From NCBI RefSeq assembly GCF_009905375.1, contig NC_133655.1, positions 168,073,995 through 168,137,994 of the forward strand: 64,000 nucleotides of DNA. The letters are read 5' to 3'. The notes under the pieces were generated by a model. That model had not been told where the DNA came from, did no database searches, and saw nothing but the letters and a program-made list of their open reading frames with translations. Every line of letters starts with the position of its first letter. The stretch's first letter is position 1. This document shows, one piece after another, positions 11,978-38,355 of this stretch. A program made the position numbers and the translations under genes. The DNA is from Apium graveolens (taxonomy: Eukaryota; Streptophyta; Magnoliopsida; Apiales; Apiaceae).

Positions 11978-11989
11978 TAGTATCAGAGC
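11978..11989 (+). other. Element B primer binding site
   Basis: TAGTATCAGAGC, two bases after the LTR end, matches the complement of the initiator-Met tRNA 3' end except for one G-to-A change. Confidence 0.7.
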
Positions 11990-13475: not shown

Positions 13476-14498
13476 TGTTGTGAATATGTTGTGCACTTGA
13501 TGATTACCTAAACAAAACATCTAAGTAGATATTACTTAGTGAAATAATGTAGCACTCGACGGATAAGAATTATAGTCCCGACGGATAACTCATTTTAGTC
13601 CCGACGGATGAGTAACTTATTATCCATCGAGTGAGTAGCTTATGTAATAATAAGTTTATAGCACAGTATTGTATGCACCTTTGTATAGAATCTGTAGTAG
13701 CATATAAGTCATGTTGACTTTAACTAGATATGCAGAATAGGTTGATTAACTGTACATAAGCAATGTCTTGTAATTCTGTATAAGTGAAATGAAGTCAAGT
13801 GCCAAAATAGCTACCAACGGATGATTAACAAAGTTTCGACGGATGATCAAATGACTATCAACGGATGTTTAAAATAGCAGTCGACGGATGATCAAGTAAG
13901 TCATCGACGGATGATCTGAAAGTTGGCGGATGATCATATCAAGATTCAAACATCAGTTGAACAGTGAAAGCTGACAGACGGCCGTCGAGTTGGATACAAA
14001 CACACTGTGGAAGCCCATTAACTGGGTAATAGAGGACGAAAAGCAGCAAAGATCAAGATTGTTAGATTTTATATTTATTCAGTTCTTTTGACTTTGTAAT
14101 CTTGGTAATATATAAACCAAGAGAGTAGCAAATAAAAAAAACAACTAAGAGAGCTAAGAAACAAACATAGAGAAATCTTTGTAAGCACTATCTTTAGCAT
14201 TTCCTGTGTTCTTAGTAGTTCTATTTTGTATAAGCAGCTGTGAGCATTTCTGCACACAGAGTCCTCTCGATATATTAAATATATCTCTGGTGGAATTGTT
14301 TAAATCCACCAGAAAGTTTTTAAAGACTCTTGTTTTTAATTACTCTTGTTTTGATTCATTAAAGTTTATATTCCGCATTGTGCTAATCAAAACATATATA
14401 TCTATAATCAAGTTGAACATTTTTATCTCAAGAAAAAGTTCAAGAATTCCATTCAACCCCCCTTCTGTAATTCTTGCTATATTGTTAAGGGACTAACA
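13476..14498 (+). repeat. Element A 5' LTR
   Basis: The LTR runs TGTTGTGAAT...GGGACTAACA, 1023 bp, and matches 37333-38355. Between 13554 and 13995 it holds about eleven copies of TCGACGGAT and variants (CCGACGGAT, AACGGATG), mostly in one orientation. They lie just upstream of the TATA box at 14109-14116. The array therefore lies in U3, where an enhancer would be expected. Confidence 0.95.
14109..14116 (+). promoter_or_regulatory. TATA box in element A 5' LTR
   Basis: TATATAAA in the context GGTAATATATAAACCAAGAG. It is preserved in all four LTRs of this family in the window, for example at 49599-49606 in A2. Transcription would start about 30 bp downstream. Confidence 0.6.
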
Positions 14499-14500
14499 AT

Positions 14501-14512
14501 TGGTATCAGAGC
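14501..14512 (+). other. Element A primer binding site
   Basis: TGGTATCAGAGC lies two bases after the 5' LTR. It is complementary to the 3' end of initiator-Met tRNA, the usual primer for plant copia elements. Confidence 0.9.
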
Positions 14513-14559
14513 AAGCTCTTAATCTACAAAGAGTTTAAAGATCAAAACAATACAACAAG

Positions 14560-16956
14560 ATGAACAAGAAAGATGTTGGAGTCAAGATTCCTTTTCTTGA
14601 TAAAGATAATTACCATCATTGGAAGGTAAAGATGCATCTTCATATGCTTTCTCAAGATGAGGCCTATGTGGACTGCATAGAAAGAGGACCTCATGTTCCA
14701 ATGAGAGCTGCAACAGGAAATGAACCATCTGTTCCAAAGCCAAGGCATGAATGGTCTGATCCTGATATTGAACAAGTCAGGAAAGATAAAAAGGCCATGA
14801 ACATTCTGTTCAATGGTGTTGATGCAGACATGTTTGATAACATCATCAACTGCAAGACTGCCAAGGAAGTTTGGGACACAATACAGATAATCTGTGATGG
14901 TACTGAGCAAGTAAGAGAAAATAAAATGCAGCTCCTGATTCAGCAATATGAGCATTTTCACAATGAAGAAAGTGAGTCACTCACTGACATTTTTAGTAGA
15001 TTCCAAAAGCTACTAAATGCTCTTAAATTGCATGGAAGAGTCTATCAGACTAAAGACTCCAATCTGAAATTTCTCATATCTCTTCCAAAGGAATGGAAAC
15101 CAATGACAGTCTCATTGAGAAACTCACAAGATTATAAGGAGTTTACTTTGGAGAGACTGTATGGCATTCTGAAGACCTATGAGCTTGAGATAGAGCAGGA
15201 TGAAAGAATGGAGAGAGGAAAGAAGAAAGGAGGATCCATTGCACTAGTGGCTGAACTGGAAAAGGAGAAGGAAGTGAAGATGGAAGCTGTGGAATCAACT
15301 TCAAAGGCCTGTGAAAGCAAGGGTAAAGGGCTAGCTGCAGAAATTGAAGATTCATTGAGTCAAGATGACATGGAGGACATTGATGAGCACCTAGCATTCC
15401 TTTCAAGAAGATTTGCCAAGCTCAAGATCAAGAAGAACTTTGGAGCTGCCAAGACAAATAGAAACATGGTGGATAAATCAAAATTCAAGTGTTTCAAATG
15501 TGGCTTGGCAGGGCATTTTGCAAATGAGTGTAGAAAGTCAGATTCCAGTAAGAAAAGATTTGAGTCTGTGGATTATAAGCAAAAATACTTTGATCTACTC
15601 AAACAAAAGGAAAGGGCTTTTATTACATAAGAGAATGACTGGGCAGCTGATGGTTTGAATGAAGATGAGGATGTCAGCTATGTCAATCTAGCCCTTATAG
15701 CCAAATCTGATGAAACAGAGACAAGTTCCTCAAGCAATCAGGTAATTACTACAAACCTTGCACATTTATCTAAAACTGAGTGTAATGATGCAATAAATGA
15801 CATGTCTACAGAATTGTATCATTTGCGTATTACACTTAAGTCCCTCACTAAAGAAAATGCTAAAATCAAATAAAACAACTTGTTTTTGAGTGAGAGGAAT
15901 AATGTGCTTGAGTCTCAGTTTGTTGAGTTTGAGAAACTAAAAATTGAGTGTAGAATTGCTAAGGAGGAATTAACTGAGTCCTTGAAAAAGGAAGAAATTT
16001 TAAAGAAGCAGCTCGATCGTGAATAGGAGGTGATTAAAGCATGGAAAACATCCAGAGATGTTCATGCTCAAATTACCAAGGTTCAAGGAATTGAGTCCTT
16101 TTGTGATGAAGCCTGGAAAAAGAATAAGGAGAAACTAGAACCTATTTTGGTAGATGGATTGCTGACAGATGTCTCGACGGATGATGAGGACTATCCGTCG
16201 GATAACAAAATATGTTATCCGTCGAATGATAAAAATCCTCATCCGTCGGCTGTGAGCAAACCCATTAGCAAAGCCAAATTAACCAAGCTAAATGAAAAGT
16301 ATGGGTCTGTTTCCAAGAACTTTGTTTTAGGGGAGTCAAGTCAAGCCAAGAAAGGGAAGAAGGCTAATGTTGGTCACATGACTGTCAAACAGTTGAGTGA
16401 CAGACTTGAGAAGATAGAGGTAAAAACAGAGACTAAAAGGAAAAATAATAGGAATGGTAAAGTAGGGATTAACAAACATAATAACTACACACCTGACAAA
16501 TATGCTCCTAGAAAAATCTGTGTCAAATGTGGTAGTGTAAATCATTTGTCTGTTAATTACAAATCTGCCATGCCTACTCCCATGTCTGTTCAGCCTCAAT
16601 TCTCTAACATGAATGCCATGCCTCCTATGCCTGTTAATGCTATGCCTACACAGAACATGAATGCACAGTTTGCTAATATGCCATTTACACCTAATCCATA
16701 TTATGCTGCATACAATATGCCTCAAATGCCATTTAGCATGCCTTACTGGAATAACATGTTTGCACCAAGCATGCAATTTCCTGTTAGTCATAACATGCAT
16801 AATAATTCTGTTGCATCTAGTGGTTTCAAAGGCCCAACCCAAATGACTAAGGAAGAATCTGAAATTCCTAAGTCAAATGAGTTAAGACCTAAGAAACAGA
16901 AGAAGAAAGCTAACAAGGCAGGACCCAAGGAAACTTGGGTACCAAAATCAACTTGA
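14560..16956 (+). pseudogene. Element A gag (three nonsense changes)
   Basis: The frame is colinear with the intact 799-codon gag of A2, with in-frame stops at 15628-15630, 15871-15873 and 16024-16026. At these points A2 has Gln, Glu and Gln codons. The N-terminal gag domain starts MNKKDVGVKIPFLDKDNYHHW. A CCHC zinc knuckle (CFKCGLAGHFANEC) is intact. The second one (CVKCGSVNHLSVN) has lost its last Cys to Tyr. A Met/Pro/Asn/Gln-rich tail follows. Nucleotides 16174-16249 hold a cluster of the TCGACGGAT/ATCCGTCGG motif. The frame closes at TGA 16954-16956 before pol begins in another frame. Confidence 0.9.
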
Positions 16957-16970
16957 TTTGATTTTGATGT

Positions 16971-19006
16971 GTGCAGGGAAACAGAAGGAATCTTTGGTAC
17001 TTGGATAGTGGTTGTTCAAGATACATGACTGGTGATTCTACCCTGCTCACAGAGTTTAAAGAGAGAGCTGGTCCAAGTATCACTTTTGGAGATGACAACA
17101 AAGGTTATACTGTGGGATATGGCTTGATTTCAAAGGACAATGTCATCATTGAAGAGGTTGCCTTAGTGGATGGTCTCAAACACAATCTGTTGAGTATCAG
17201 CCAGCTTTGTGATAAAGGCAACTCAGTAACCTTCAACAAAGAAACCTGTGTTGTGATTAATAATCAAAACAACAAAGTGGTTCTCACTGGTGTGAGAAGA
17301 GGAAATGTGTATCTAGCTGACTTCAACTCAACTAAAGCAGAATCTGTAACTTGTCTTCTCAGTAAAGCAAGTCAAGATGAAAGTTGGCTATGGCACAAGA
17401 AGCTATCCCATTTGAACTTCAAGACCATGAATGAGCTGGTAAAGAAAGAGCTGGTTAGAGGCATTCCTCTGGTGGAGTTTACAAAGGATGGACTGTGTGA
17501 TGCCTGCCAAAAAGGGAAGCAAATTAAAGCATCATTCAGGAAGAAACTTGATTCAGCAATTGAAGAACCTCTGCAACTGCTTCACATGGATTTGTTTGGA
17601 CCAGTCAATGTATTGTCAATCTCAAAGAAAAGATTTTGCCTAGTAATTATAGATGATTTCTCAAAGTTCTCTTGGATCTATTTCCTAAAATCCAAAGATG
17701 AAGCTAGTGAAATCATCATCAATCACATAAGGCAAGTTAACAATCATCCTGATTTCAAAGTTAGAAGAATCAGGAGTGACAATGGAACTGAGTTCAAGAA
17801 CTATGTCATGAGAGCATTCTGTGAGGAAAATGGGATCTTGCATGAGTTTTCAGCAGCAAGGACTCCACAACAGAATGGAGTAGTGGAAAGAAAGAATAGA
17901 TCTCTTATTGAAGCTGCAAGGACAATGCTTGAAGAATCAAAATTACCAACATATTTCTGGGCTGAAGCTGTCAACACTGCATGCTACACTCAGAACATCT
18001 CTCTGATTAATCAAGCAAAATGCAAGACACCTTATCAATTGTTCAAAAAGAAGAAGCCAACTCTGAACTTTCTTCATGTCTTTGGCTGTAAATGCTATAT
18101 TCTGAGAAATCAAACTGATCAAAATGGGAAGTTTGATGCTAAAGCAGATGAAGGAATTTTTGTTGGATATGCTGTTGGTAAAGCATATAGAGTCTACAAT
18201 CTAAGAACCAACATTGTTGTTGAATCTATACATGTTGTGTTTGATGATAAAAAGATTGAAGGACTAAAAGATGGAGATTACCATGAGAGCCTCAAATTCG
18301 ACAATATTGAGATGGTCAGTGATGAAAGTGATGATGAGAGTGATCAAGAAATAGTATCTAAGGATAATGCAAACAAATTTACTACAAATGAAGCACAAAA
18401 CTCAACATCCATCGAGTTACATAATGCTTCATCCGTCGGAAGGCAATCTGTATTATCCGTCGGAAGACAACCTGCCTCATTCGTCGGTACTCAAAATTCA
18501 CCATCCGTCGGGTTATCAAAAGGAGCAGGAAGTCAAGACAGATCACCCATAGAAAGCACCCCAATCTCAAATCAAAGATCCACAAACTCAGGGGGAGTTT
18601 CTAGCAATCAAAACTCAATCACACATCAAGACAACATTGAGGTCTCTTCATCTAGGGCTAATCTACCTCAACCAAGAAAATGGACAAAAGATCACCCCTT
18701 TGAACTGATTATTGGTGATGTTTCTTCCAGAGTTCAAATCAGGAGAGTAACTCAAGAAGAATGTCTATACAGCAGCTTCTTGTCTAAGGAAGAACCAAAG
18801 AAGGTAGAAGAAGCCTTATTAGATCCTGATTGGATTTTAGCTATGCAAGAGGAGCTAAACCAATTTGAAATGAATAAAGTATGGAAGCTGGTACCCAAGC
18901 CTAAAGGAAAGAATCCAATAGACACCAAATGGGTATTCAGAAACAAGATGGATGAAAATGGCATAGTAGTAAGGAACAAAGCAAGATTGGTTGCTAAAGG
19001 CTATTG
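16971..19006 (+). pseudogene. Element A pol, 5' part: protease, integrase, start of RT
   Basis: The polyprotein is open from just after the gag stop, in the -1 frame relative to gag. Visible are the protease (LDSGCSRYMTG), the integrase zinc region (HKKLSHLNF...CDACQKGK), the integrase core with D-D-E context (HMDLFGPVN, RSDNGTEFKN, QQNGVVERKNRS), and the RT entry ([21 protein letters not shown]). Positions 18407-18512 hold five copies of ATCCGTCGG or variants, read as S-V-G repeats. The gene is cut within RT by element G; 19002-19006 (TATTG) is the target site. This half has no internal stop. Confidence 0.9.
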
Positions 19007-22000
19007 TGTAATATCCGGAAAATTATGTGAATATTATATGTTAAATAAATAAATATTGTGTGTTTTATAAATTTAAAGTAATTGTTGCTATGATATGAGA
19101 TGTTATAACTGTTATGTATGTTTCTGTACGGGCCAGAAAATTTTTCGGTTGATTAAAATATGCTTAAACTGCAATTATATGAATCTATCTGCAATCGGGA
19201 CGCGTAATTATCAGCATCTTCATTAGGATACCTGTTTTATTTGATTTTATACGTGTGATTGTATTTTACGTGTTTTCGGGATTTTCTGGTAATATAGGGA
19301 TCGTTTCCGTTTTTCAAAAATCAACGGACCGGGACCCCACCGGGACATCAAACCCCACAAAATCCGCGTTTTCATTTTTATAAAATTATTCGTATTTCAA
19401 ATACCCATTATTTTTTTATTTTCGAATTATTCGCAATTTTTGGGAAATTTTGACATTAATTTTATATTTTATCAATTTTAAAATTATTCCCCGTAATTAT
19501 TATTTTGGGGCTTAATTATTGTAATTTAGGTATAAAAACACCCTTAAATAATTTTGGGGATATAATTTGTTATAAGTATAAATAGCATATTTATTGTATT
19601 TTATTTATTTTTATTTTAGAAATTATTAAAAATAAAACCAAAATTTAGGAAAAATCAAAATTGGGGATTTAGGGTTCTAGGGTTCGTTCTTGAGCCAAAT
19701 CGACTGATTGACTACTGATTTCTGATCCGTTCGTTCCGATATTGATCCCATATCAAAGCCCTGAGTTTCCTCTTCAATTCGGTACCAGAATATCAACCTA
19801 AGGTTGGGTATTTTGCGATTTTCATTTTCGTCGATATGAACTCGAATTGGGTACTTCATCTGTGATGATTTTCTGTTTGATTTGATAGTTTAAATAGATT
19901 CCTGAGATGATTTTGAACTTATTTGTATATATAAATGTATCAAACGATTACTTAGATTGGTAGTTCGAATTCAATTTGGGAAGTCGAATTTTCGATTAAA
20001 TTTTCCGTTATTTTTGTTGATGATTTGATGTTGGTGAATACATGAATGGATTACTGTGATTACAAGCTTCGTTTTTAGTTATATGATGTTGAGTTTGGTG
20101 GTTGCTGGGCAGCTCGCCGGAAAACCGACGAGTTCGCCGGATTTTAACTGTTTAATGGCCGGGGAAGATGAACTGGGGAAGGGTTATGGTTGCTGGGTTG
20201 ATAATCCTATTATAGAACGAATTAGGCTTGTTTGGCCTCGAAATCAGGGTGAACCAGAGTGTTCTTGGGCTGGCCGGAGTCCGGCAGAACCTACCGGATT
20301 CTGGGTTTAACCCCAGTTTCCGGCGGGTTTTGACCCGACCCGGTTAGGGTTCTTGCAGGACCCGAAAACCCAATACCCTGACCCGGTTTTCATCCTTATT
20401 TCCCAAAACCCAGCTTCAAAACTTGTTTGTGGGATTTTCTGTTTTATTTATTTTAAAAAAAATTCATTTTCTATTTTTGAAAATCATTTATTTAATTTCA
20501 AAAATCATTTAATAATTATTTTAAATTCTAAAAATTATTTTCTTAATTATTTTAAATTCCTAAAATTATTTTCTTTTATTATTTTCAAAAATTTAATTTG
20601 ATTTAATTATTTATAAATTATTTTAGTTAATTATTTATGAATTCAATTAATTGATTAAAAATCATTTAATCAGTTAATTTCATTTATAAATAGTTAAATA
20701 AATGTAAATTATTTATAATTAATTCGAATAATTTCTAAAAATTATTTTAAGGTTTTAAAAATTATATTTTGGTATTTAAAAATCAATTAATATTATTATT
20801 AATTGATTTAAATCTATTTATTTCTTATTTTATTCATAATAATTAAACCGTTCGTCCGTTTAATACGAAACGAACGCGTACAGACTCAGAAAAATATTGC
20901 GCTTCCAATAAAAATACTTTTGAGACCTAATTTCTTTTATATTGCAATCTTATTTGATTTGTGTATCAGCTTAAGTCGGTATTTGATCGGTAAATGCTAA
21001 TATTGAACTGATTTTCATTCTGAACGCACTGAGACGTACCCCTTAATGATTTGACTTATGTGTTACATAAAATATGTGAGTACGTGTTATATAAATGCCA
21101 TGATTACGTGTTACGTGATATACATGCTATCTGTTATAATTTTAAAATGCCATGCTAGTTATAAACGATCGGGTAGATGTCAAGACGTATAGTTACGTCG
21201 ATTGAGTTTAGATCTGTCAATTAAGATAGTCCTTTTGTTTATAGAATCGAGTAGCAAGGAGCGCAGTCAAGTGTTAGACGGAGATAGTAGCCAGCAGATA
21301 GAAACAGAGTTAAAATAAGAGGTTATTGAGCATACCAGGCAAGTACCCTAACTTCACTTATTGTTCCAGTGACGTTTATTTTGAATCTTATTATGCAAAT
21401 ATTTATATGTTCACATACCATTCAAGTGTTATTGACTCTAAATTTATCCTTTTAATTTCTCTACTATTCTAAGTTCAGAATAGTTAAATATTTTTACATT
21501 TCGCTATAACTTACTCTATACAGTGAAGCTTTAAATTGAGACTAGCGAATAACTAATTGTTCTGGTTATTTCGCCATTGGTTGTTGAGAAAACTCCGGAC
21601 CATGAGAAATGGGGAGTTATGTGGTTAAGGATGTCATTTGATTCGACTCCTTTGATGGAAAATGGTTTTATGGGTTGGATGGTTGCGTAAGAGGCCGTGG
21701 CGGCGGTCCAGTGTGAGCTATGTGTTATACAGGATATAACACCTTGCTAGGCCAATATGTGCCTTGGGTACCTTTTGTTTAGTTGGATATGCTTCGGCAT
21801 ACCGGTGTTGCTCCGCGGCTGATCACCGGCGGCAACACACCGTCGTTCGAGGATTCCAATCCCAAAACATAATATATTGTAAATGTTGTTTATTATCAAA
21901 TTTATATCAGTTTTGATACTGTTCAGTTATTGTAGTTGGTTTTGTTCATCAGATATACTGTTGTTATTCCAAATCATAAGCTATTTACTACTTGCTGAGC

Positions 22001-22364
22001 ATTTCTTTCGCTCATACTTGTTTCTTATCTTGATTCTTTCAGCTAGGCCAGGGCAAGCTTAAGTTCCAGGTCTGACCAGAGGTTATGTGTTTGTAAATAG
22101 TTGGTGTGTTTCCAGGTAGACAGTTTGGGATACTTAATTAGTCTAGAGGTTTGTAATAAAATTTGAATAAGTTGTAAAACTAATTAGACTATGGTTTGTA
22201 ATAACACTTGATTTGTAGTAGTGCCTGTTCCATACTATAACCTGTGATTGATCCAGTGCAGGTAAAGGGGTCGTATTTATTTTATTATTCCGCTGTGATT
22301 ATTTTATTTTAGTTTATTGGCGAGTGACCCCCAAATCTAGACCCCGGGTTTGGAGGGCGTCACA
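19007..22364 (+). repeat. Element G 5' LTR
   Basis: The LTR runs TGTAATATCC...GGGCGTCACA, 3358 bp. A TATA-like TATAAATAG lies at 19577-19585. Much of the rest is extremely AT-rich. An 84-codon ORF at 20056-20310 is preserved in the other LTR only because the two are nearly identical; I assign it no function. Confidence 0.95.
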
Positions 22365-22367
22365 GGT

Positions 22368-22379
22368 TGGTATCAGAGC
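22368..22379 (+). other. Element G primer binding site
   Basis: TTGGTATCAGAG, three bases after the LTR, is complementary to initiator-Met tRNA. Confidence 0.85.
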
Positions 22380-22826
22380 TACAGGTTATGGTCACTGAAA
22401 CAGGCGTAGGATTGTCATAGATGAGTCATAGGAAGATCACATAAGATAGGCGCGTGTAATTTAGCTTTTATAGGATTAAATTTAGGATGTTGGGCTGGGT
22501 TATAGTTAAGTTGTTTAGGTTTCCTGTTTTGTGTTTAGCCTCAGGCCTTGTGTCATTGCCCTGTTATTTTGTTGGTTTAGTTGAGATTTTAAGTAAGGAT
22601 TTATAAGGTTTGGATAATTCGGAGTAAATTTTCTTTATGTTATTATTCTCGAGATAATAAGCAGGATTATGTGATAATCATGTCGCTTGTGTTAATATGG
22701 TAGCAAGTTTATGATATTTTGGAGAAGAGATAGTGTTTGCGAACTTTAATATGTTAAAGAATTGCTACATATTTGACACAATGCTTGACAGATTATTATA
22801 TATGTTGCTTGTTTCTTACCAGAATA

Positions 22827-25800
22827 ATGGCACCAAAGAGAAGGAATAATTCAGGAGAGGGTAGTACCGAGAGCCGTACAGATCCAGCGATTATCCAGAT
22901 GTTGGGACTGATGCAGCAGCAGATGTTACATCTTACGCAGCAGCAACAGCAGCAGCGAGCAGCACCATCTGTAGTGACTTTTAAGCAGTTTCAAGCAATG
23001 AAGCCACCTGAGTTCAAGGGAAGTGCTGATCCTGTGGAAGCCAATGCATGGCTCAAGGAAATGGAAAAGGCTTTTGAATTGGTCGGAGCAGGAGCTGAGC
23101 AGAAGACCAAGTTTGCAAGTTACTTTTTGAAGGGCGAGGCGAACTATTGGTGGGAATCCACGCGAGCATTGGAAGGAGGTGAGTTTATAACTTGGGAGAG
23201 ATTCACAGAGTTGTTCCTGGAGAAATATTTCCCGAGGTATATGAAGAATCAAATGGAGATTAAGTTCTTGAACCTGACCCAGGGTGATCTTACTGTGGCT
23301 GAGTACGAGGCTAAGTTTACTGAGTTAGCAAGGTTCGTGCCAGACCAGGTTGATACAGATGAAAAGAAAGCCAGAAGATTTGAACAGGGATTGAAGTTTT
23401 GGATTCAGAATAGAGTGGCCATGTTTGAGTTGACTTCATATGTGGCAATGGTTCAGAAGGCAATGGTGATTGAGAGTAGGAGTGATATGTCTCAGAAAGG
23501 AAATGATGGGAAGAAAAGGAAAATGGAAACCTCAGAGGGAGGTCAGCAGTCAAGTAATTTTCAGGGCCGTTTCAACAAAAGGCCAGGATTTCAGGGTAAT
23601 AGGAATGTGGGATTCAAGAGACCACAATCAGGAAATGGAGGACAAGGCAATCATTTTCAGAATTCAAATCAGCAGAGACCCAATCGTCCACCTGTGTCAG
23701 AGTGCAAATTTTGTGGTAGAAGGCATTTTGGGATTTGTAAGGCTAATGTGTTGTGTTATAAGTGCAATCAGAAGGGACACTATGCTAATGAGTGTCGAAG
23801 TCAGACTACAGCTCAGAGATCAGGGACAGTATGCTTTAAATGTGGAAAGATGGGGCATATTTCCAGGGACTGCCAGACAATTGAACCAACTGCTAATGTG
23901 CCAAGGATTGAAGGACCACCAACAAAGGACCAGCCAAAGGCTAGGACATTCAATATGACTATGAAGGATGCTGTTCAGAGTTCAGACGTGGTGGCAGGTA
24001 CGCTTCCAGTCAACTCCATAGATGCTAAAGTTTTATTTGATTCTGGAGCTACAAGATCATTTATTTCTCAAAGTTTTGTCGATAAACTGCATTGTGAAGT
24101 TAAGTTGTTAGAACAAATATTAATGATAGAGTTAGCTAATAAGGATCAAGTTTCCGTCGACCGAGTGTGCCCGAAGTGCGATATTAAGATAGGAGGACAT
24201 CATTTCTATGCCGACTTAATACCTTTTAAGTTGGGAGAATTTGATGTTATTTTAGGAATGGATTGGTTGTCAGAAAATAACGCCCAGATTGATTGTAAGA
24301 ATAGGAAAGTGAGACTTCAGACCTTGGATAATAAGAAGAAGGTGATATTCCGAGGAAATAAGCAAGAGAAGAAGTTCTTAACGATCGCTCAAGTGAAGAA
24401 GTTATTGCGTCAGAATTGCGAAGCATATTTGGCCCATGTGATAGACACCAGTAAGGAAGTTCCAACACTAGAAGCGATTCCAATTGTCAACGAATTTTCA
24501 GATGTCTTTCCAGACAATCTACCAGGATTACCTCCCGACAGAGAAATTGAGTTTGCAATTGATCTAGCACCCGGAACAGAACCAGTTTCTAAAGCCCCGT
24601 ACCGGATGGCACCAGTGGAAATGAAAGAATTGGCATCTCAGCTGCAAGATCTTTTGGAGAAAGGAGTTATAAGACCCAGTGTATCCCCATGGGGCGCACC
24701 AGTACTGTTTGTCAAAAAGAAGGATGGGAGTATGCGACTGTGTATCGACTATCGAGAACTGAATAAGCTAACTATTAAAAACAAGTATCCGTTACCAAGG
24801 ATCGATGATTTGTTTGACCAATTGAGAGGCGCTGTATGGTTTTCTAAGATTGATTTAAGATCCGGATATCATCAATTAAAGATCAAGCCTGAAGACATTC
24901 CGAAGACCGCATTTAGAACCAGATATGGGCATTATGAGTTTCTAGTAATGGCATTTGGATTAACTAACGCACCAGCAGCTTTCATGGATCTGATGAATCG
25001 AGTATTTAAAAAGTATTTGGATAAATTCGTGATCGTATTTATAGACGACATCTTGATCTATTCCAAAACAGAAGAGGAGCATGTAGAACATTTGAGGATA
25101 GTTCTGGAGATACTGTGACAGGAGAAGTTATACGCAAAGTTTTCCAAGTGTGAATTTTGGTTAAAAGAAGTACGATTTCTTGGGCACGTGATTAGCAATA
25201 AAGGAGTGGAAGTGGATCCAGCAAAGATTGAAGCCGTAATCAACTGGGAGAGGCCAAAAACACCAACGGAAGTAAGAAGTTTCATGGGATTGGCAGGTTA
25301 CTACAGAAGATTTGTGCAAGATTTTGCAAAGATAGCTACGCCATTGACAAAGCTTACCAGGAAGAATCAGAAATTTGAATGGGATGAGAAGTGCGAAGAA
25401 AGTTTCCAGGAATTAAAGAATAGATTAGTATCTTCTCCAGTGCTAGTCTTGCCAGATGAACAAGGAAATTTTGTGATCTACAGTGACGCGTCGTACAAAG
25501 GATTAGGATGTGTTTTGATGCAGCATGACAAGGTAATAGCTTACGCTTCAAGACAGTTGAAACCACACGAAGAGAAGTATCCAACGCATGATCTGGAATT
25601 GGCAGCTATAGTATTTGCATTGAAGATTTGGAGGCATTATCTTTATGGGGAAAAGTGCGAGATCTACACGGACCACAAGAGTTTAAAATATATCTTTACC
25701 CAGAAGGAATTGAACATGAGGCAGAGGAGATGGCTAGAACTAATCAAGGATTACGACTGTACTATTAACTATCATCCAGGCAAAGCAAATGTGGTGGCCG

Positions 25801-27359: not shown

Positions 27360-27383
27360 GCTGATTCTGAGGACAGAATCCTG

Positions 27384-27398
27384 TTAAGGGGGGAAGGA
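27384..27398 (+). other. Element G polypurine tract
   Basis: TTAAGGGGGGAAGGA lies directly before the 3' LTR. It is the expected primer for plus-strand DNA synthesis. Confidence 0.85.
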
Positions 27399-30300
27399 TG
27401 TAATATCCGGAAAATTATGTGAATATTATATGTTAAATAAATAAATATTGTGTGTTTTATAAATTTAAAGTAATTGTTGCTATGATATGAGATGTTATAA
27501 CTGTTATGTATGTTTCTGTACGGGCCAGAAAATTTTTCGGTTGATTAAAATATGCTTAAACTGCAATTATATGAATCTATCTGCAATCGGGACGCGTAAT
27601 TATCAGCATCTTCATTAGGATACCTGTTTTATTTGATTTTATACGTGTGATTGTATTTTACGTGTTTTCGGGATTTTCTGGTAATATAGGGATCGTTTCC
27701 GTTTTTCAAAAATCAACGGACCGGGACCCCACCGGGACATCAAACCCCACAAAATCCGCGTTTTCATTTTTATAAAATTATTCGTATTTCAAATACCCAT
27801 TATTTTTTTATTTTCGAATTATTCGCAATTTTTGGGAAATTTTGACATTAATTTTATATTTTATCAATTTTAAAATTATTCCCCGTAATTATTATTTTGG
27901 GGCTTAATTATTGTAATTTAGGTATAAAAACACCCTTAAATAATTTTGGGGATATAATTTGTTATAAGTATAAATAGCATATTTATTGTATTTTATTTAT
28001 TTTTATTTTAGAAATTATTAAAAATAAAACCAAAATTTAGGAAAAATCAAAATTGGGGATTTAGGGTTCTAGGGTTCGTTCTTGAGCCAAATCGACTGAT
28101 TGACTACTGATTTCTGATCCGTTCGTTCCGATATTGATCCCATATCAAAGCCCTGAGTTTCCTCTTCAATTCGGTACCAGAATATCAACCTAAGGTTGGG
28201 TATTTTGCGATTTTCATTTTCGTCGATATGAACTCGAATTGGGTACTTCATCTGTGATGATTTTCTGTTTGATTTGATAGTTTAAATAGATTCCTGAGAT
28301 GATTTTGAACTTATTTGTATATATAAATGTATCAAACGATTACTTAGATTGGTAGTTCGAATTCAATTTGGGAAGTCGAATTTTCGATTAAATTTTCCGT
28401 TATTTTTGTTGATGATTTGATGTTGGTGAATACATGAATGGATTACTGTGATTACAAGCTTCGTTTTTAGTTATATGATGTTGAGTTTGGTGGTTGCTGG
28501 GCAGCTCGCCGGAAAACCGACGAGTTCGCCGGATTTTAACTGTTTAATGGCCGGGGAAGATGAACTGGGGAAGGGTTATGGTTGCTGGGTTGATAATCCT
28601 ATTATAGAACGAATTAGGCTTGTTTGGCCTCGAAATCAGGGTGAACCAGAGTGTTCTTGGGCTGGCCGGAGTCCGGCAGAACCTACCGGATTCTGGGTTT
28701 AACCCCAGTTTCCGGCGGGTTTTGACCCGACCCGGTTAGGGTTCTTGCAGGACCCGAAAACCCAATACCCTGACCCGGTTTTGATCCTTATTTCCCAAAA
28801 CCCAGCTTCAAAACTTGTTTGTGGGATTTTCTGTTTTATTTATTTTAAAAAAAATTCATTTTCTATTTTTGAAAATCATTTATTTAATTTCAAAAATCAT
28901 TTAATAATTATTTTAAATTCTAAAAATTATTTTCTTAATTATTTTAAATTCCTAAAATTATTTTCTTTTATTATTTTAAAAAATTTAATTTGATTTAATT
29001 ATTTATAAATTATTTTAGTTAATTATTTATGAATTCAATTAATTGATTAAAAATCATTTAATTAGTTAATTTCATTTATAAATAGTTAAATAAATGTAAA
29101 TTATTTATAATTAATTCGAATAATTTCTAAAAATTATTTTAAGGTTTTAAAAATTATATTTTGGTATTTAAAAATCAATTAATATTATTATTAATTGATT
29201 TAAATCTATTTATTTCTTATTTTATTCATAATAATTAAACCGTTCGTCCGTTTAATACGAAACGAACGCGTACAGACTCAGAAAAATATTGCGCTTCCAA
29301 TAAAAATACTTTTGAGACCTAATTTCTTTTATATTGCAATCTCATTTGATTTGTGTATCAGCTTAAGTCGGTATTTGATCGGTAAATGCTAATATTGAAC
29401 TGATTTTCATTCTGAACGCACTAAGACGTACCCCTTAATGATTTGACTTATGTGTTACATAAAATATGTGAGTACGTGTTATATAAATGCCATGATTACA
29501 TGTTACGTGATATACATGCTATCTGTTATAATTTTAAAATGCCATGCTAGTTATAAACGATCGGGTAGATGTCAAGACGTATAGTTACGTCGATTGAGTT
29601 TAGATCTGTCAATTAAGATAGTCCTTTTGTTTATAGAATCGAGTAGCAAGGAGCGCAGTCAAGTGTTAGACGGAGATAGTAGCCAGCAGATAGAAACAGA
29701 GTTAAAATAAGAGGTTATTGAGCATACCAGGCAAGTACCCTAACTTCACTTATTGTTCCAGTGACGTTTATTTTGAATCTTATTATGCAAATATTTATAT
29801 GTTCACATACCATTCAAGTGTTATTGACTCTAAATTTATCCTTTTAATTTCTCTACTATTCTAAGTTCAGAATAGTTAAATATTTTTACATTTCGCTATA
29901 ACTTACTCTATACAGTGAAGCTTTAAATTGAGACTAGCGAATAACTAATTGTTCTGGTTATTTCGCCATTGGTTGTTGAGAAAACTCCGGACCATGAGAA
30001 ATGGGGAGTTATGTGGTTAAGGATGTCATTTGATTCGACTCCTTTGATGGAAAATGGTTTTATGGGTTGGATGGTTGCGTAAGAGGCCGTGGCGGCGGTC
30101 CAGTGTGAGCTATGTGTTATACAGGATATAACACCTTGCTAGGCCAATATGTGCCTTGGGTACCTTTTGTTTAGTTGGATATGATTCGGCATACCGGTGT
30201 TGCTCCGCGGCTGATCACCGGCGGCAACACACCGTCGTTCGAGGATTCCAATCCCAAAACATAATATATTGCAAATGTTGTTTATTATCAAATTTATATC

Positions 30301-30756: not shown

Positions 30757-30761
30757 TATTG

Positions 30762-32073
30762 TCAGCAAGAAGGGATAGATTTTGATGAAACATTTGCTCC
30801 TGTTGCAAGACTTGAAGCCATCAGAATCTTCTTAGCCTATGCAGCCCATGCCAATTTCAAGGTCTATCAAATGGATGTCAAAAGTGCCTTTCTGAATGGA
30901 GATTTGGAGGAAGAAGTGTATGTAAGTCAACCTCCTGGCTTTGAAGATCCAAATTTCCCAGAGTATGTCTATTATCTACTGAAAGCACTTTATGGACTGA
31001 AGCAAGCACCTAGAGCCTGCTATGACACTTTATCAAAGTTCCTTTTGGAAAATCACTTCACAAGAGGTACTGTAGATAAAACTTTATTTTCCAGAAATGT
31101 GAATGGCTCTAGCATACTTGTTCAAATTTATGTAGATGATATTATTTTTGGCTCTACAGATGAGAAACTTTGTAAAAAGTTTGCCAAACTGATGCAAAGC
31201 AAGTATGAAATGAGTATGATGGGAGAACTAACTTACTTTCTTGGTTTACAAGTTAAGCAAGTTAGTGATGGAATATTCATTAGTCAAACTAAATATATTT
31301 TTGATCTTTTAAAGAAGTTTGATCTAATGGATTGCACATCTGCAAAAACTCCCATGGCCACTACAACTAAGCTTGAACTAAACACTACTGAAAAGTCTGT
31401 GGATATTTCAAGTTATAGAGGCATGGTTGGCTCATTTCTGTACTTAACAGCCAGTAGGCCATATATAATGTTTGCTACATGTTTGTGTGCTAGATTTCAG
31501 GCTGATCCTAGAGAGTCTCATTTGATAGCTATTAAAAGAATTTTCAGATATCTCAAAGGAACACCAAACCTTGGCATTTGGTATCCTAGAGTTTCTGGTT
31601 TTGATCTAACTGGTTATTCAGATGCAGATTATGCAGGTTGCAGAATTGATAGAAAAAGCACAACAGGAACCTGTCAATTTTTATGAGACAAGCTTGTGTC
31701 CTGGTTCAGTAAAAAGCAAAATTCAGTTTCTACTTCTACAGCTAAAGCTGAATATATTGTTGCTGGCAGTTGCTGTGCACAGATTTTATGGATGAAAAAT
31801 CAATTGCTAGACTATGGTTTGCAAGTTGATAGGATTCCTATTTTCTGTGACAACACAAGTGCAATTGCCATCACTGAAAATCCAGTGCAACATTCAAGGA
31901 CAAAGCATATAGACATCAAGTACCATTTCATAAGGGAACATATAATGAATGGTACTGTAGAGTTACATTTTGTTCCAAGTGAGAAGCAACTTACAGATAT
32001 TTTTACCAAGCCATTGGATGAATCCACCTTTTCTAGGTTGGTAAGTGAGTTAGGTATGCTTAATTACTCTTGA
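30762..32073 (+). pseudogene. Element A pol, 3' part: RT and RNase H
   Basis: This continues the RT reading frame exactly after the G target duplication: [39 protein letters not shown] and the active site YVDDIIFGS. RNase H follows ([37 protein letters not shown]). A TGA at 31684-31686, where A2 has Gly, splits RNase H. The Trp usually following APRA is Cys here. The frame ends at 32071-32073. Confidence 0.9.
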
Positions 32074-32570
32074 ATTTATCTGAATTATTCTTGCAAGTTG
32101 AAAAGAAGCCAGCAATTTAGTTGATTTTTAGTCTTGGATGAAATTTTGGCTAAGTCAAAATTTGTGTCTCGACGGATGACCATTATCCATCGGGTTGAGT
32201 CATCCGTCGATATACAAATTGTAAATAAAAATCAATTACTTTTCTGGAATATTTTAAAGCTCGACGGATAACATCTTATCCTCATCCGTTGAAGTGTCTA
32301 AATCTGAACCGTTAATTCCCTGAACATTATCCATCGAGTATACTTACAGTTTATAAGCATTACAGGACGGATAATGGGTGGAATTTTTAAAGTTTATTTT
32401 AAAACGGTCATTTTAGGCAATTTCTATTGGGTAATTTACTTCTCTTTATTATTTTTATCCGTTGATTTTGAGCAAAGTATAAAAGCCTATTTCATTCTAA
32501 TCATTTTCTTTTATCATTCTCAAATTCAACTGTGTTATTTCATTCTCTCTCAAGCTTTTCTTCTCTAACA
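32074..32570 (+). other. Element A pol-ORF3 spacer with motif cluster
   Basis: This noncoding spacer of about 500 bp holds at least seven motif copies at 32169-32373: TCGACGGAT, ATCCATCGG, ATCCGTCGA, ATCCGTTGA and others, in both orientations. Neighbouring opposite copies can pair as hairpins. Its 3' end is pyrimidine-rich up to the ORF3 ATG and could hold an internal promoter or splice acceptor for ORF3; this is inference. An equivalent spacer lies at 55811-56329 in A2. Confidence 0.6.
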
Positions 32571-35500
32571 ATGGCACCCGTAGTAAAGATCATGTCACAG
32601 ACTGGGTTCATCTATGAGAAGAACAACTTCACTGCCTTGGTCAATAAGGGGATTCAGCAATCTGAAGACTATCATAAGATAATGGACTTCGTGAAGAACT
32701 GCAAGTTAAGTTTTGCTATGCTGGAATCACCCACAATCTATTGTGAAGTTGTTGAGGAAATGTGGACAACAGCAATCTACAACTCTACTGACAAAACCAT
32801 CACTCTGACCATCAAAGGTAATGATTTCTGTATCAATAGTGATGTAATAAAAGCATGTTTCAAGATTCCTGATGATAATGTAACTGCACCACACACTGAC
32901 ACTGATATTGTCAATATGCTCAATTCCATTCATTATGCACTTCCTACTGCAAAACTAAGTGAAATTAGAAGACTAGGTCTTAGGAAGGAATGGAGTTACT
33001 TGTGTGATGTAGTAACTAAAGTCTTTTCTGGAAAAATCAGTAATTTTGATTCTGTGAACATTTCCATGCTTAACATGCTATACATGCTAGTTACAGACAA
33101 ATATTATAATTTCAGTGACCTTGTTGTGTATGAGTTAGGTTTTAAACTAGGTGACTTAGCCAAAAGAGGAAAGAATATTTACTATGCTAGATTTTTTATG
33201 CTTTTGGCTAACCATCTTTGTCAAGAGATTGAACTTGAGAACCCAAACAACAAATTAGCTTGTTGGGTTCAAGAGAGAAGAATCATTGCAGACTTGAACA
33301 GAGCCAACCATCACAAGGATGTGCCAATGTTCTATTTTCCTGTAATGCTGACACCTCAGGTAAGTGAGGTAAGTGAGGTAAGTTCATCCACACCCTCAAC
33401 TATTCCAATCTCTTCCATTTCTTTGACTTCAGGCATAGCTATGGCAACTGTGAAAATGACCAAACAGTTGCCTACCAAAGCTGCCAAAATAACTGCAATT
33501 CCCAAATCCAAATCAAAGAAAACCCCCTCTGGTATCTCTCAAAAGGTACCAGTTGAAAAATCTACCAAAGCCAAAGACGGGAGTATGAAAGAGGGTAAGA
33601 TAGGTGGGGGAAGGGGTGAACATCAAAGAAACCCCAAGGATAAGGTTGAAGAGATGAGTGAATCCCAGCCTAGCCACACTGCAGTTTCCCAACAAACTGC
33701 AGTGCTTAAAAAGGACAGAAGCTCACTTCTAGCTGCATCCTCCCAAAAGGATATGGCTATTGAACAAAGCTCTCATCCAAGAGCACAGGCCAAGAGGGTT
33801 AGGGACACAAGCTCACACCAAACTTACACTAGAAAGAAGAAATCCAAAACAACTGGGGATGCACAGGGCACACACTTAGTGCAAACTGGTGCTAAAGACA
33901 CAGTCCCTGCACCTTCTCAAATTCAGATTGATGTGGCTCCAATAAATGTGGAGTCACAGCCAAAATCTCTCATTATAGAAGCCACTGAAACACAATACTC
34001 ACCAACCAACTCACTGGAAGTGGACATGATAAACACTTCAATTCCTGATTCCCCTTCTTTAACTCTGTTGGGGAAGCCAAAATCCAGTGCAAGTGAGCAT
34101 CATCTTTTAGATGATTTGTTGTCTCACTTGCCAATTCTTTCTGATTCTATTGTGACATCTGTGCCTCAAATAACTTCAATCAACACAGAGTCAACAATAG
34201 TTTCTCTTCCCACCTCATTCATTTCTACTCTCTCGATGGATATTGCTCATCCGTCGAGTAGTGATTGTATCCCGACGGATAAGCTTAACAGCAGTTATCC
34301 GTCGGATAGCTTTACCACTCACCCGACGGATATCACTTATCCGTCGAGTGTCTCTGCACAACTTCAAAATTCAATAATTTCAAGTGCAGAAGATTTGGTG
34401 GTAATACAATCACTCTTAGGACTGAGAGAGGAGAGTGCATTGAGTGAGAGGCTGGGTTGCTCCCAGGCAAAAGGAGAGGAAAAGAGTGAATCTCAGCAAT
34501 CCATTCATTCAGGATTGGCAAAAGTGAGTGAGAGGAGTCCCACCTTAGTAGGTGAAGGTGAGAGTGTGAGGGTGGGGAGCCAGGGTGAGACCCTGATGCA
34601 ACAAAAGAGAGAACATGAGAGAAAACCAGGTACTGGAGAAATAAGGATGGAACCAGCCATTGCTAGTGAGTCAATGATTGTGGATGATGCTGAAAAGGAA
34701 AGACAATTTCAGCAACATTACAAAGCTGTAATTGATAACATTTCCTTGGATGCTGACACTTTTACTCACCCTGTTTCAGCCTATCAACTGTTGGCTGCTC
34801 AGGGCAATGTGGAGGCAGAGCAGACTTTGCACTTAGTGCACACCACAGAATCTCTTCAAAGAGATAAAGCTGCTGTAAACAGGATGCCTCCTCAAGCTGG
34901 AGAGCCATCTGAAGAATTTGGAGTAAATTCTGATGATGATGACTCTAGTTCTTTGAATGGAAGCATGAACTTAGGGGGAGCTGAAGGCCCAAGTTCTGCT
35001 TTAAGTTTACCTGAATGGGCATGGGCAAAGGAATTTACACCAGGACAATTTGAGGTGTCTTTGGTAAAACAAGTAACAGCTATTCAGCAAGCCCTTCAGG
35101 AAGCTTCAGATACTGGTACCAAGGCTGTTCTTAAAGCTCATCTAGACTCTTTGCATTTAATGAAGATCCAACACTCAAGACAGAATCTCAGTGTGGATGA
35201 ATTGAAAAAGGAGATAGCTGACTTAAAGACATATAACTCTGATAAGCTGGATTCAATAATGCCATATGGTACCATACATGATCTATTACTAAGGTTGAGA
35301 AGAAAATCAGATTCTGACAAGAAGATAGCCAAGCTGGAGACCAGAGTTCAGGTTATTGAGAATTCAGTGGCTCTACTTCTTCAAAATCAACAGACTCAGA
35401 CAAATCTTCTCATGCAACTGGCTAAAGCACAAGGCCTAACTCCTCCACTTGATGATAACAAAAAGGGGGAGAGAGAATCAAGTAAGGGGGAGAAAGGACC

Positions 35501-37144
35501 AACTGAGGGGGAGAACATTTTAGTTCAAATCAACAAAGTAATTGTACCTTCAATTACTATCTCCAAGCCACCAGTTGCAGATGGTATAGATCTTATAAAT
35601 GCAGCAACAGCAAATTTGAAAGATGCTGATAAAGAAGAGTTGACTCTGATCAACTGGAAAAAGATTGATGAGGAAATACAGAAAAAGTTTCAATTAATCA
35701 AGGAACCAGATCAGTCAGCCATCCATCACTCTCATGTCAAGCCAATCAATGTGAATGAGATGAGCATGAACTATCTGGAGAAAGTACAATCTTCCTGCAT
35801 CAAGACTACAAAGGCTGAGATAATTCTTAAACCAAGGGCAAACTATCCAAAGTCATCTTTGAAGAACCCTATAGATACTGTGTATGAGACACCCAAGCCT
35901 GATGAAAAGAAGCTTCTGTCAAGATCTATTCTCCTTTACAAAGATCCAAGTGATTCAGCCTCAAGAAAGAGAATTGCAAAAATATTCAGAAATGGGAAGG
36001 AAATTTGTGTGGTAGCTGGACATCCACAATTTGCTCATGCAAAGGAAGAAGAAAAAGCCAGATTGAAGCAGGAAAAGAGGCAAGCTGCTCTAGATGCAAA
36101 GAAGTCTAAATAAAAGAAAGAACAGTTTGCTATCTTGACCAAGCTACAGGCTGTGAACTCTTCTCAACAAATTCCCTCTCAACCAACTCAAGCTACTGAA
36201 TCAAAGAAGAAGATTGAAGAACAGAAGAAATCTCCAAGAAAGAAAGAACTGTCTAAAAGAACAAAAAGAAGTTGGATATTGTTAACAAGGAATTGGAAGA
36301 TCAATTTCCAATGGAATCCACTAAAGCTGAAACTCAAGCATCAAAGCCCTCTATGGTATTTGAAGACATAAGGGTGGTGGACCCCTACAGGAACATACAT
36401 GAAGAGCCTATTGTGCTAAAGGATGAGCCAATAGAGTGGGATAAATTACCAATTCCTGACTTCAACTTGCCAATTCTCACCAAGCCAAGAAGGATAAAAT
36501 CAAGGGCAATCAAGAAAGTGAAGTTGTCACCTCTCAAATCCAAGGCAGTAGTCAAAGCTCAACCCAAGATCAACAAGGGAGACTACCTGTACTTGTGTGA
36601 CATCAAAGAATTCTCAGACCTAAACCTTTATCTGGAGGAGCTGGATGAGGTAAGGGCAATTGATGCATACAGAAACCTACCTGAAAGGTTGGTATTCAAG
36701 TACAAAGGAGGAAGGGAGATTCAGTGGCCTCTTCACAGGATACTTCAAGAAAGCCAAGCTGTGTTGATCAAAGTCTATTCATCCTTCAAGAAAAACTTTG
36801 GGTTTAATGTAACTGCAAGAAGATTAGTATTGAAGAAGATTGAGGAGCTAAGGAGTGTTAGAGCCAGAGATGCACTACCCAAAACTCTTAACATCCTATA
36901 CACAGGGAGAAGAGTGCATCTAAGGCCCTACTGGCTGATGGAATTCATGGATGACAAGGGTGTGAGAAGATTCTTCAGATTAGAAGACCAATTGAGTATC
37001 TCTAGCAATGAGACTCTCTTGGAAATGCAAGAAATGTTAGATCTCTCAGAATCTGATGAATTAGAATTCCACAAATAGCTCCAGAATCAAATTGAAGAAA
37101 ACAACAGAAAGCTTGGAAGAAGATCCAGACCTTCAAGAAACTAG
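32571..37144 (+). pseudogene. Element A third ORF (Sirevirus 'envelope-like' position), broken
   Basis: The start MAPVVKIMSQTGFIYEKNN opens a frame of 1181 codons to TAA at 36111-36113, where A2 has Gln. It continues as homology through a 1-bp deletion near 36270 and a further TAG at 37076-37078 to the family's natural end near 37144. The first ~260 residues form a globular-looking domain shared with element D, reminiscent of the 'putative plant transposon protein' domain seen in many plant retroelement ORFs. Next come a Ser/Thr/Lys-rich region, acidic low complexity, a coiled-coil-like segment at nucleotides about 35320-35430, three KGE-rich repeats, and a basic C-terminal domain (FKKNFGFNVTARRL). 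I see no clear signal peptide or membrane anchor, so an envelope function is unsupported. Nucleotides 34232-34348 hold the motif cluster. Confidence 0.8.
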
Positions 37145-37332
37145 AAAAATCTGCTCAGGCTAGAGGAGCATCTTGAACTGACTGTGAGCCAAACCTTGTA
37201 TATCTTGTTTAAATTGAAGCACTTTCAGTTTTATCTACTTATCTTTAAAGATATATGTTTAGGATGTTTTGTTATCATCAAGTATCTCTTAATTTATGGC
37301 TACAATTCCAGTAGACATAAATTGGGGGAGAT
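37145..37332 (+). other. Element A 3' untranslated region and polypurine tract
   Basis: There is no coding sequence. The segment ends in ATTGGGGGAGA (37321-37331), the polypurine tract one base before the 3' LTR. Confidence 0.8.
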
Positions 37333-38355
37333 TGTTGTGAATATGTTATGCACTTGATGATTACCTAAACAAAACATCTAAGTAGATTTTACTTAGTGAA
37401 ATAATGTAGCACTCGACGGATAAGAATTATAGTCCCGACGGATAACTCATTTTAGTCCCGACGGATGAGTAACTTATTATCCATCGAGTGAGTAGCTTAT
37501 GTAATAATAAGTTTATAGCACAGTGTTGTATGCACCTTTGTATAGAATCTGTAGTAGCATATAAGTCATGTTGACTTTAACTAGATATGCAGAATAGGTT
37601 GATTAACTGTACATAAGCAATGTCTTGCAATTTTGTATAAGTGAAATGAAGTCAAGTGCCAAAATAGCTACCAACGGATGATTAACAAAGTTTCGACGGA
37701 TGATCAAATGACTATCAACGGATGTTTAAAATAGCAGTCGACGGATGATCAAGTAAGTCATCGACGGATGATCTGAAAGTCGACGGATGATCATATCAAG
37801 ATTCAAACATCAGTTGAACAGTGAAAGCTGACACACAGCCGTCGAGTTAGATACAAACACACTGTGGAAGCCCATTAACTGGGTAATAGAGGACGAAAAG
37901 CAGCAAAGATCAAGACTGTTAGATTTTATATTTATTCAGTTCTTTTGACTTTGTAATCTTGGTAATATATAAACCAAGAGAGTAGAAAATAAAAAAAACA
38001 ACTAAGAGAGCTAAGAAACAAACACAGAGAAATCTTTGTAAGCACTATCTTTAGCATTTCCTGTGTTCTTAGTAGTTCTATTTTGTATAAGCAGCTGTGA
38101 GCATTTCTGCACACAGAGTCCTCTCGATATATTAAATATATCTCTGGTGGAATTGTTTAAATCCACCAGAAAGTTTTTAAAGACTCTTGTTTTTAATTAC
38201 TCTTGTTTTGATTCATTAAAGTTTATATTCCGCATTGTGCTAATCAAAACAAATATATCTATAATCGAGTTGAACATTTTTATCTCAAGAAAAAGTTCAA
38301 GAATTCCATTCAACCCCCCTTCTGTAATTCTTGCTATATTGTTAAGGGACTAACA
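37333..38355 (+). repeat. Element A 3' LTR
   Basis: This 1023-bp LTR is the partner of 13476-14498. It keeps the same motif array at about 37410-37850 with small changes: one copy that is GTTGGCGGATG in the 5' LTR is still GTCGACGGATG here. Confidence 0.95.

What the first reader, a model, noticed from the sequence alone, without database searches (positions are those of the whole stretch)
13476..38355. A 9-bp motif (TCGACGGAT / ATCCGTCGA) repeated in five places per element, including three coding regions
In element A the motif and near variants form an LTR array (13554-13995, repeated in the 3' LTR) and four internal clusters: gag 16174-16249, pol 18407-18512, pol-ORF3 spacer 32169-32373 and ORF3 34232-34348. 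A2 has the same clusters (51665-51741, 53899-54004, 55905-56107, 57982-58098). I count more than 40 copies per element. The same DNA word is read as Y-P-S-D in gag, S-V-G in pol and H-P-S-S or P-T-D in ORF3, so selection or spread seems to act on nucleic acid and not peptide. Palindromic LTR motifs have been described in Sireviruses (a different CACCGGACT-type word). An array that also colonises gag, pol and ORF3 is, to my knowledge, not standard.
Basis: partly seen in the sequence, partly recalled or inferred. Interest (0 to 1): 0.9.

Follow-up and report, generated by a model that had tools for sequence, protein, structure and literature searches.

The report
Sirevirus motif arrays inside coding genes
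A family of celery retrotransposons carries one short DNA word dozens of times per copy, in its ends and inside its genes; a sister family in the same genome carries a version with one letter changed at nearly every site sampled, as if each family had its own recognition code.

Summary
Two Sirevirus-type copia elements (A 13476-38355, A2 48876-62194) in the celery genome carry YCGACGGAT in the LTRs, gag, the integrase-RT linker of pol, the pol-ORF3 spacer and ORF3. Codon-preserving shuffles never reach the coding counts. Genome-wide the spaced pair occurs 14,994 times against 2 for the reversed control.

LTR and pre-ORF3 arrays are a known Sirevirus trait (the "RM" of PMC2829016). Clusters inside gag and pol did not appear in my paper searches.

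The unexpected result is a word switch. A sister family B in the same genome keeps the ORF3 layout exactly (offsets 0, 16, 39, 64, 90, 106; same strands), but 73 of 74 sampled B words have A at position 3, against 29 of 29 G in the coding clusters of A and A2. In ORF3, six of nine word positions are identical in 48 of 48 A-B comparisons and position 3 in 2 of 48, while between-word DNA is 56% identical. Selection therefore acts on the nucleic-acid word. I read the words as sites for a sequence-specific DNA-binding factor, comparable to VANC target arrays of VANDAL transposons. Binding, methylation and expression were not tested; host or element origin of the factor is open.

The parts
13476..14498 (+). 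5' LTR of element A; word arrays at 13556-13630 and from 13814 to about 13960, upstream of a TATATAAA at LTR position 634
16174..16249 (+). gag cluster of A: four words, strands + - - -, offsets 0, 19, 43, 67
18407..18511 (+). pol cluster of A in the integrase-RT linker: five minus-strand words 24 nt apart (two of them variant)
32169..32465 (+). pol-ORF3 spacer cluster of A, both strands
32571..36113 (+). ORF3 (envelope-like gene position) of A, 1180 aa open stretch; Pfam Transposase_32 below cut-off at the N-terminus
34233..34347 (+). ORF3 cluster of A: six words alternating + - + - + - at offsets 0, 16, 39, 64, 90, 106 (nested dyad)
37333..38355 (+). 3' LTR of A with the same arrays (15 substitutions of 1023 against the 5' LTR)
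19007..30000 (+). stretch holding the Ty3/gypsy-type element nested in pol of A (repeat copies near 19007 and 27399); no core words
48876..49987 (+). 5' LTR of element A2 with word arrays at 48956-49030 and 49214-49421
51666..51741 (+). gag cluster of A2, same layout as A
53899..54003 (+). pol cluster of A2, five words 24 nt apart
55906..56201 (+). pol-ORF3 spacer cluster of A2
57983..58097 (+). ORF3 cluster of A2, same layout as A
61085..62194 (+). 3' LTR of A2 with the same arrays; GTGTG stands before 48876 and after 62194

Best explanation
The words are binding sites of a sequence-specific double-stranded-DNA-binding factor, laid out in clusters along the whole element. Shown: real clusters at the same five places in A-like copies; ORF3 layout and strands identical in A and B; word conserved while coding DNA between words drifts; a predominant word per family. 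Inferred: a protein reads the word; arrays upstream of the LTR TATA and of ORF3 drive or gate transcription; the gag, pol and ORF3 clusters let the same factor act every 2-3.5 kb, so that the element is kept open against silencing as VANC proteins do for VANDAL elements. I think a factor tied to the element (ORF3 or the Gag C-terminus) about as likely as a host factor, with a slight lean to the element, because two related families in one nucleus use different words.
For: Codon-preserving shuffles 0 of 8,000-20,000. Word columns more alike than between-word columns in the divergent pairs (flank identity under 0.75): gag 0.91 v 0.64 (16 of 16), pol 0.75 v 0.57 (12 of 12), ORF3 0.81 v 0.68 (6 of 6). 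Identical ORF3 layout in A and B with position 3 differing in 46 of 48 comparisons. 73 of 74 B words with A at position 3, against 29 of 29 G in gag, pol and ORF3 of A and A2. Genome-wide spaced pairs (lower bounds by the tool's note): TCGACGGAT 14,994 (reversed control 2), TCAACGGAT 174,082 (10), but TCAACTGAT 163 (28) and TCTACGGAT 12 (7). Word shape YCRACGGATRA with little information outside it in 99 non-redundant copies (the core was fixed by the search). RT of B is 88-91% identical to A2. RNA structure is absent in the main LTR array (z +0.4) and weak in pol (z -1.3 to -2.5), so hairpins are not the common feature. Precedent: VANC21 binds a 9-base motif, and a different motif goes with VANC6, in arrays that differ between related TEs (PMC5735166, passages).
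Against: No DNA-binding domain was found. Models of the ORF3 N- and C-terminal parts are poor (mean pLDDT 57 and 62) and have no PDB match at E 0.001. A more distant Sirevirus lineage in the same genome (L024, L025/L026; RT of L025 76% identical) uses TCGACGGAT in its LTR array, and L025 has no gag or pol cluster, which fits a shared host factor better. LTR and spacer words of A are mixed (LTR 32 G / 12 A, spacer 11 G / 3 A); loci L013 and L021 are mixed, and single A-type words occur in coding clusters of other A-like loci (L015, L019, L027). Outside ORF3 the layouts of A and B are only partly alike (gag + - - - against + + - -; B pol has one plus-strand word). A-like loci differ from A2 in RT as much as B does (87-97%). 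Of the carrot predictions, gag was met in 1 of 11 carrot-named proteins shown and pol in 0 of 2. Only three B elements were sampled, not every cluster in each. In VANDAL the bound motif sites lie in noncoding DNA.
Confidence: 0.5

Rival explanations
1. Host transcription factor sites: the elements borrow one or more celery factors, and family B changed factor or factor preference. The form TCAACGGAT, and the carrot form TCAACTGAT inferred from peptides, fit the plant R2R3-MYB type I core YAACNG (recalled, not looked up).
For: LTR arrays lie upstream of the TATA. A lineage without detectable LTR similarity uses the same word. PMC2829016 reports mainly stress-factor matches for Sirevirus RMs.
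Against: The A word TCGACGGAT breaks that core. Related families in one nucleus use different words. Sites in gag and pol, 2-5 kb from the promoter, need another reason.
Confidence: 0.3
2. RNA-level function: words form hairpins or long-range pairs (U3 plus-strand words with gag/pol minus-strand words) for packaging, dimerisation or translation; base pairing forces joint change.
For: ORF3 (z -7.7 to -9.4), gag (-4.9 to -5.6), spacer (-4.9) and the first LTR array (-3.2) fold better than shuffles; the ORF3 cluster is a nested dyad.
Against: Main LTR array z +0.4; pol z -1.3 to -2.5; A pol words are all on one strand yet also differ from B. Long-range pairing was not tested.
Confidence: 0.12
3. 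Neutral minisatellite-like spread: template switching copies the word among clusters, so each family is homogenised without function.
For: Tandem periods of 15-24 nt in LTRs; array length differs between LTRs of A and A2.
Against: ORF3 layout and strand are fixed while DNA between words drifts to 56% identity; that DNA would have been copied too. Words fit several frames and both strands of open reading frames.
Confidence: 0.06
4. Targets of the host: palindrome-rich, CpG-bearing words attract siRNA and methylation, as reported for maize Sirevirus LTR palindromes.
For: PMC5311732 states that LTR palindromes are sRNA mapping hotspots (passages). The A word has two CpGs.
Against: Explains a cost, not conservation of the word in coding DNA. 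Compatible as a secondary effect.
Confidence: 0.02

Closest known systems
Sirevirus repeated motif (RM) arrays, PMC2829016
   Same: High-copy short word with CGG/CCG core in the LTR upstream of the TATA and upstream of the envelope-like gene; word differs between elements; element has Sirevirus junctions
   Different: Here the unit is not itself a palindrome and it also sits in gag, in the integrase-RT linker and in the middle of ORF3; the paper reports extra copies only at the start of ENV in Osr10 and HOPIE
VANC target motifs of VANDAL transposons, PMC5735166 and PMC10398659
   Same: Short word (nine bases for VANC21) in arrays; related families use different words in one genome
   Different: VANDALs are DNA transposons (recalled); their bound motifs lie in noncoding DNA; a VANC protein is known to bind. 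No such protein is shown here and words sit in coding DNA
Maize Sirevirus LTR palindromes (Bousios 2016, paper not held; statement seen in PMC5311732)
   Same: Repeated motif in the LTR cis-region of Sireviruses
   Different: Described there for the LTR regulatory region as small-RNA hotspots

Membership tests
Sirevirus (Ty1/copia) | Copia-type gag, integrase and RT_2 with large gag and central CCHC | tested here: met
   Retrotran_gag_2, zf-CCHC, rve, RVT_2 in A2; gag 799 aa
Sirevirus (Ty1/copia) | 5' LTR/PBS junction CA/ATTGG (definition seen) | tested here: met
   AACA-ATTGGTATCAGAGC in A and A2
Sirevirus (Ty1/copia) | Multiple AGGGGGAG polypurine tracts, one 10 bp before the 3' LTR (definition seen) | tested here: inconclusive
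   Four upstream AGGGGGAG in the ORF3 region of each element; the terminal tract reads TGGGGGAG
Sirevirus (Ty1/copia) | C-rich integrase signal near the LTR 3' end (definition seen) | tested here: met
   CAACCCCCCTTCTG near 14454, about 30 bp before the LTR end (read by eye; not aligned to the published signal)
Sirevirus (Ty1/copia) | RT tree with reference Sireviruses | not tested
   Tree made only among celery loci
Sirevirus RM array | CGG-CCG core, many copies in upper LTR half before the TATA and upstream of ENV | tested here: met
Sirevirus RM array | Each unit palindromic with dyad symmetry | tested here: not met
   YCRACGGATRA is asymmetric
VANDAL/VANC system | Short word in arrays, different word in related families | tested here: met
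VANDAL/VANC system | Words in noncoding DNA | tested here: not met
   gag, pol and ORF3 clusters
VANDAL/VANC system | Element protein binds the word and removes methylation | not testable with these tools
   needs binding and methylation data

The most novel reading that the evidence does not exclude
Each Sirevirus family encodes its own DNA-binding protein (ORF3 or Gag C-terminus) that reads a family-specific word written along its whole genome, coding DNA included; word and reader change together, so that sister families in one nucleus are mutually invisible. This would be a retrotransposon counterpart of VANC.
Probability: 0.25. Interest if true: 0.92.

Novelty: new variant of a known kind. 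Interest (0 to 1): 0.78.

Why it matters
Sirevirus repeated motifs were described in 2010 with no tested function; that paper says experimental confirmation is required (PMC2829016, section 9). A word that is kept in place through divergent coding DNA, and that switches by one letter across an element between related families in one genome, turns that open question into a direct binding test with built-in controls (A word, B word, one-base variants).

Tried and rejected
Peptide selection: rejected, because the word is read in different frames in gag and pol and on both strands in ORF3, and synonymous sites change together with nonsynonymous ones. Simple decay of CpG: TCGACGGAT to TCAACGGAT is a deamination-type change, but 73 of the 74 sampled B words (counted with a pattern that allows C or T at position 5) keep the second CpG, so decay alone does not explain it. 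Ancestral state is not settled: peptides of other Apiaceae suggest A at position 3, while the celery outgroup lineage L025 has G.

Protein-level check in other Apiaceae. ORF3 homologs showed STD + HPL in P0007 and STD + HQL in two carrot proteins (P0009, P0015), each pair the two strand readings of one inferred word. A prediction was noted before the gag search: carrot gag should read QL at 8-aa spacing, P0007-like gag PL. HQL, STD, HQL appears in 1 of 11 carrot-named proteins shown (P0091) and in P0073, which is named Rhizophagus; the other 10 read HPL/SMD/YPS or mixed forms. The spacing was 12 aa with a plus-strand reading between, not the 8 aa predicted. For pol P0122 (contig length 17,854) reads STD and SVD repeats as predicted; the two carrot proteins that hold the linker, P0098 and P0123, do not: 0 of 2. 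So the carrot prediction is mostly not met. Heracleum words stay uncertain. No DNA of these species was seen.

Even spacing of clusters (gaps 2.0-3.5 kb; chance 0.005 in A2 and 0.002 in B2 with approximate centres) may simply reflect where the proteins have loose linkers. Structure search of ORF3 gave nothing usable.

Rows left out: one search used 4 of the 7 A-like ORF3 copies at hand (A, A2, L017, L019; not L009, L016, L027) and not mixed L021; of the B copies it used the two that cover the cluster whole. L021 is not in the tree (split match).

An error of mine: the query piece called gagC was translated one base out of frame (26 stops shown as X). It still located the DNA, but its identities are not protein identities and are not used here; note entry 1, which cites low amino-acid identities, is affected.

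The test of mixed hairpins (A word against B word in one dyad) did not complete in seven tries; the pure A form has 1,622 places.

Full report
Setting. The window lies in a 3.33 Gb plant genome. Best protein matches are to Apium graveolens, and the published celery assembly has a total length of 3.33 Gb (PMC8051603, passages), so I take the host to be celery. Element A (13476-38355) and element A2 (48876-62194) are Ty1/copia elements with gag, pol and a third ORF. Sirevirus marks are present: the CA/ATTGG junction, a C-rich stretch near the LTR end, repeated AGGGGGAG, a large gag, and arrays before the TATA. Element A holds a nested Ty3/gypsy-type element in pol. LTR divergence is 15 of 1023 sites in A and 21 of 1113 in A2; the A2 figure includes 3-5 flanking bases.

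Observation. Exact copies are 16 (A) and 19 (A2); with one mismatch the clusters hold 38 and 45. Shuffling synonymous codons within each of six coding pieces gives means of 0.015-0.074 core words against 3-5 observed, and never reaches the observed number in 20,000 shuffles (8,000 for A ORF3). None of 25,795 bases outside the elements holds the core.

Genome-wide. The pair pattern with gap 0-30 has 7,613 + 7,381 matches for TCGACGGAT (reversed control 0 + 2), 87,164 + 86,918 for TCAACGGAT (control 6 + 4), 64 + 99 for TCAACTGAT (control 14 + 14; some of the listed places have TCAACGGAT between the pair) and 6 + 6 for TCTACGGAT (control 3 + 4). The tool calls such counts lower bounds. Two words one letter apart are abundant; TCTACGGAT, one letter from both, and TCAACTGAT, one letter from the B word, are not. 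TCCACGGAT was not searched.

Conservation. In loci taken from hits (20 stretches), clusters recur at the same places of the element: gag in 8 of 9 loci (deleted in L017), pol 9 of 9, spacer 7 of 7, ORF3 6 of 6. These loci were chosen for carrying a word pair and all lie in the first 19 Mb of contig C1, so they are not a random sample. Aligned clusters (9 gag, 11 pol, 8 ORF3 rows, window included) show word columns more alike than columns between words in every pair with flank identity under 0.75: 16 of 16, 12 of 12, 6 of 6. Over all pairs, pol word columns (0.75) are below the flank (0.79) though above the columns between words (0.65); rows that lack single words count as mismatches.

The switch. 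Pieces of three B elements show the ORF3 cluster with the same six offsets and strands as A in the two that cover it whole. In A (four copies) against B (two copies), word positions 2, 4, 6, 7, 8 and 9 are identical in 48 of 48 comparisons, position 3 in 2 of 48, position 1 in 24, position 5 in 40, and columns between words in 272 of 488; copies within a family are close relatives, so these are not 48 independent events. Over the sampled B clusters (LTR and spacer from two elements each, gag, pol and ORF3 from three) 73 of 74 words have A at position 3. In gag, pol and ORF3 of A and A2 it is G in 29 of 29, in their LTRs 32 of 44, in their spacers 11 of 14. Other A-like loci have a few A-type words in coding clusters and two loci (L013, L021) are mixed. 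The gag, pol and spacer layouts of A and B are only partly alike. RT of B is 88-91% identical to A2, within the range of the A-like loci (87-97%). In an 11-row RT tree the A-like loci, including mixed L013, form a group apart from B at 93/94 support, below the tool's threshold.

Word shape. Among 99 non-redundant copies the pattern is YCRACGGATRA, with low information outside (positions 2-9 were fixed by the search, with A or G at 3). The R after the word would explain why the gag and ORF3 peptides mostly begin with Y or H rather than N or D (inference).

Other Apiaceae. Homologs exist in carrot, Heracleum and unnamed contigs. Peptides at the cluster places suggest other words with the same two-strand logic, best in the set P0007/P0049/P0122 (ORF3, gag, pol), which share a contig length of 17,854. 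The carrot prediction was met in gag in 1 of 11 carrot-named proteins shown plus P0073, not with the predicted spacing, and in pol in 0 of 2. This is inference from protein alone. P0073, named as a Rhizophagus protein, reads like carrot and may be carrot DNA in that assembly (inference).

Mechanism. A DNA-level word, indifferent to strand and frame, kept where proteins seem to have loose linkers, and largely specific to a family, is what arrays of protein binding sites look like. RNA hairpins are predicted in ORF3 (z -7.7 to -9.4), gag, spacer and the first LTR array (-3.2), but not in the main LTR array (+0.4) and barely in pol, so they are at most an added role. The closest working model is VANC of VANDAL transposons, where a nine-base motif and its relatives form arrays that differ between families (PMC5735166, passages; PMC10398659, abstract). 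The factor here is unknown. ORF3 gave only a below-cut-off Transposase_32 match and low-confidence models without structural matches. A distant celery Sirevirus lineage that shares the A word in its LTR speaks for a host factor.

Known or new. PMC2829016 (abstract, section 9 and passages) describes LTR and pre-ENV arrays with a CGG-CCG core. My searches for motif clusters in gag or pol, for this word, or for celery elements were in one open-access library; I saw listings of at most 20 papers each (335 papers held the bare 9-mer, 20 listed), and none described such clusters in its title or shown abstract. Bousios 2016 was not held and is known here only through PMC5311732 (passages). I rate this a new variant of a known kind.

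Noticed in passing
window 19007-30000: A Ty3/gypsy-type element with a weak chromodomain match (PF00385 below cut-off) is nested in pol of element A; the stretch carries no copies of the core word.
   Followed up: partly
window 34973, 35464, 35485, 35506; 58723, 59214, 59235, 59256: The Sirevirus polypurine octamer AGGGGGAG occurs four times in the ORF3 region of each element.
   Followed up: no
P0073: A gag protein named as Rhizophagus irregularis carries the HQL/STD form seen in carrot P0091; possibly host-root DNA in the fungal assembly.
   Followed up: no
L024, L025/L026: A distant Sirevirus lineage with no detected LTR similarity to A uses TCGACGGAT arrays with mostly 22-24 nt spacing.
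   Followed up: partly
window 45436-47199 minus: A 587-codon open frame between the two elements without any Pfam match at E 0.001.
   Followed up: partly
window 5373-6257: Piece of a POT-family transporter gene (PF00854), a host-gene-like stretch.
   Followed up: partly
window 34225-34355 and 57975-58105: The ORF3 cluster is predicted to fold as a nested three-stem hairpin (z about -8) that family B keeps with changed letters (z -9.4).
   Followed up: partly
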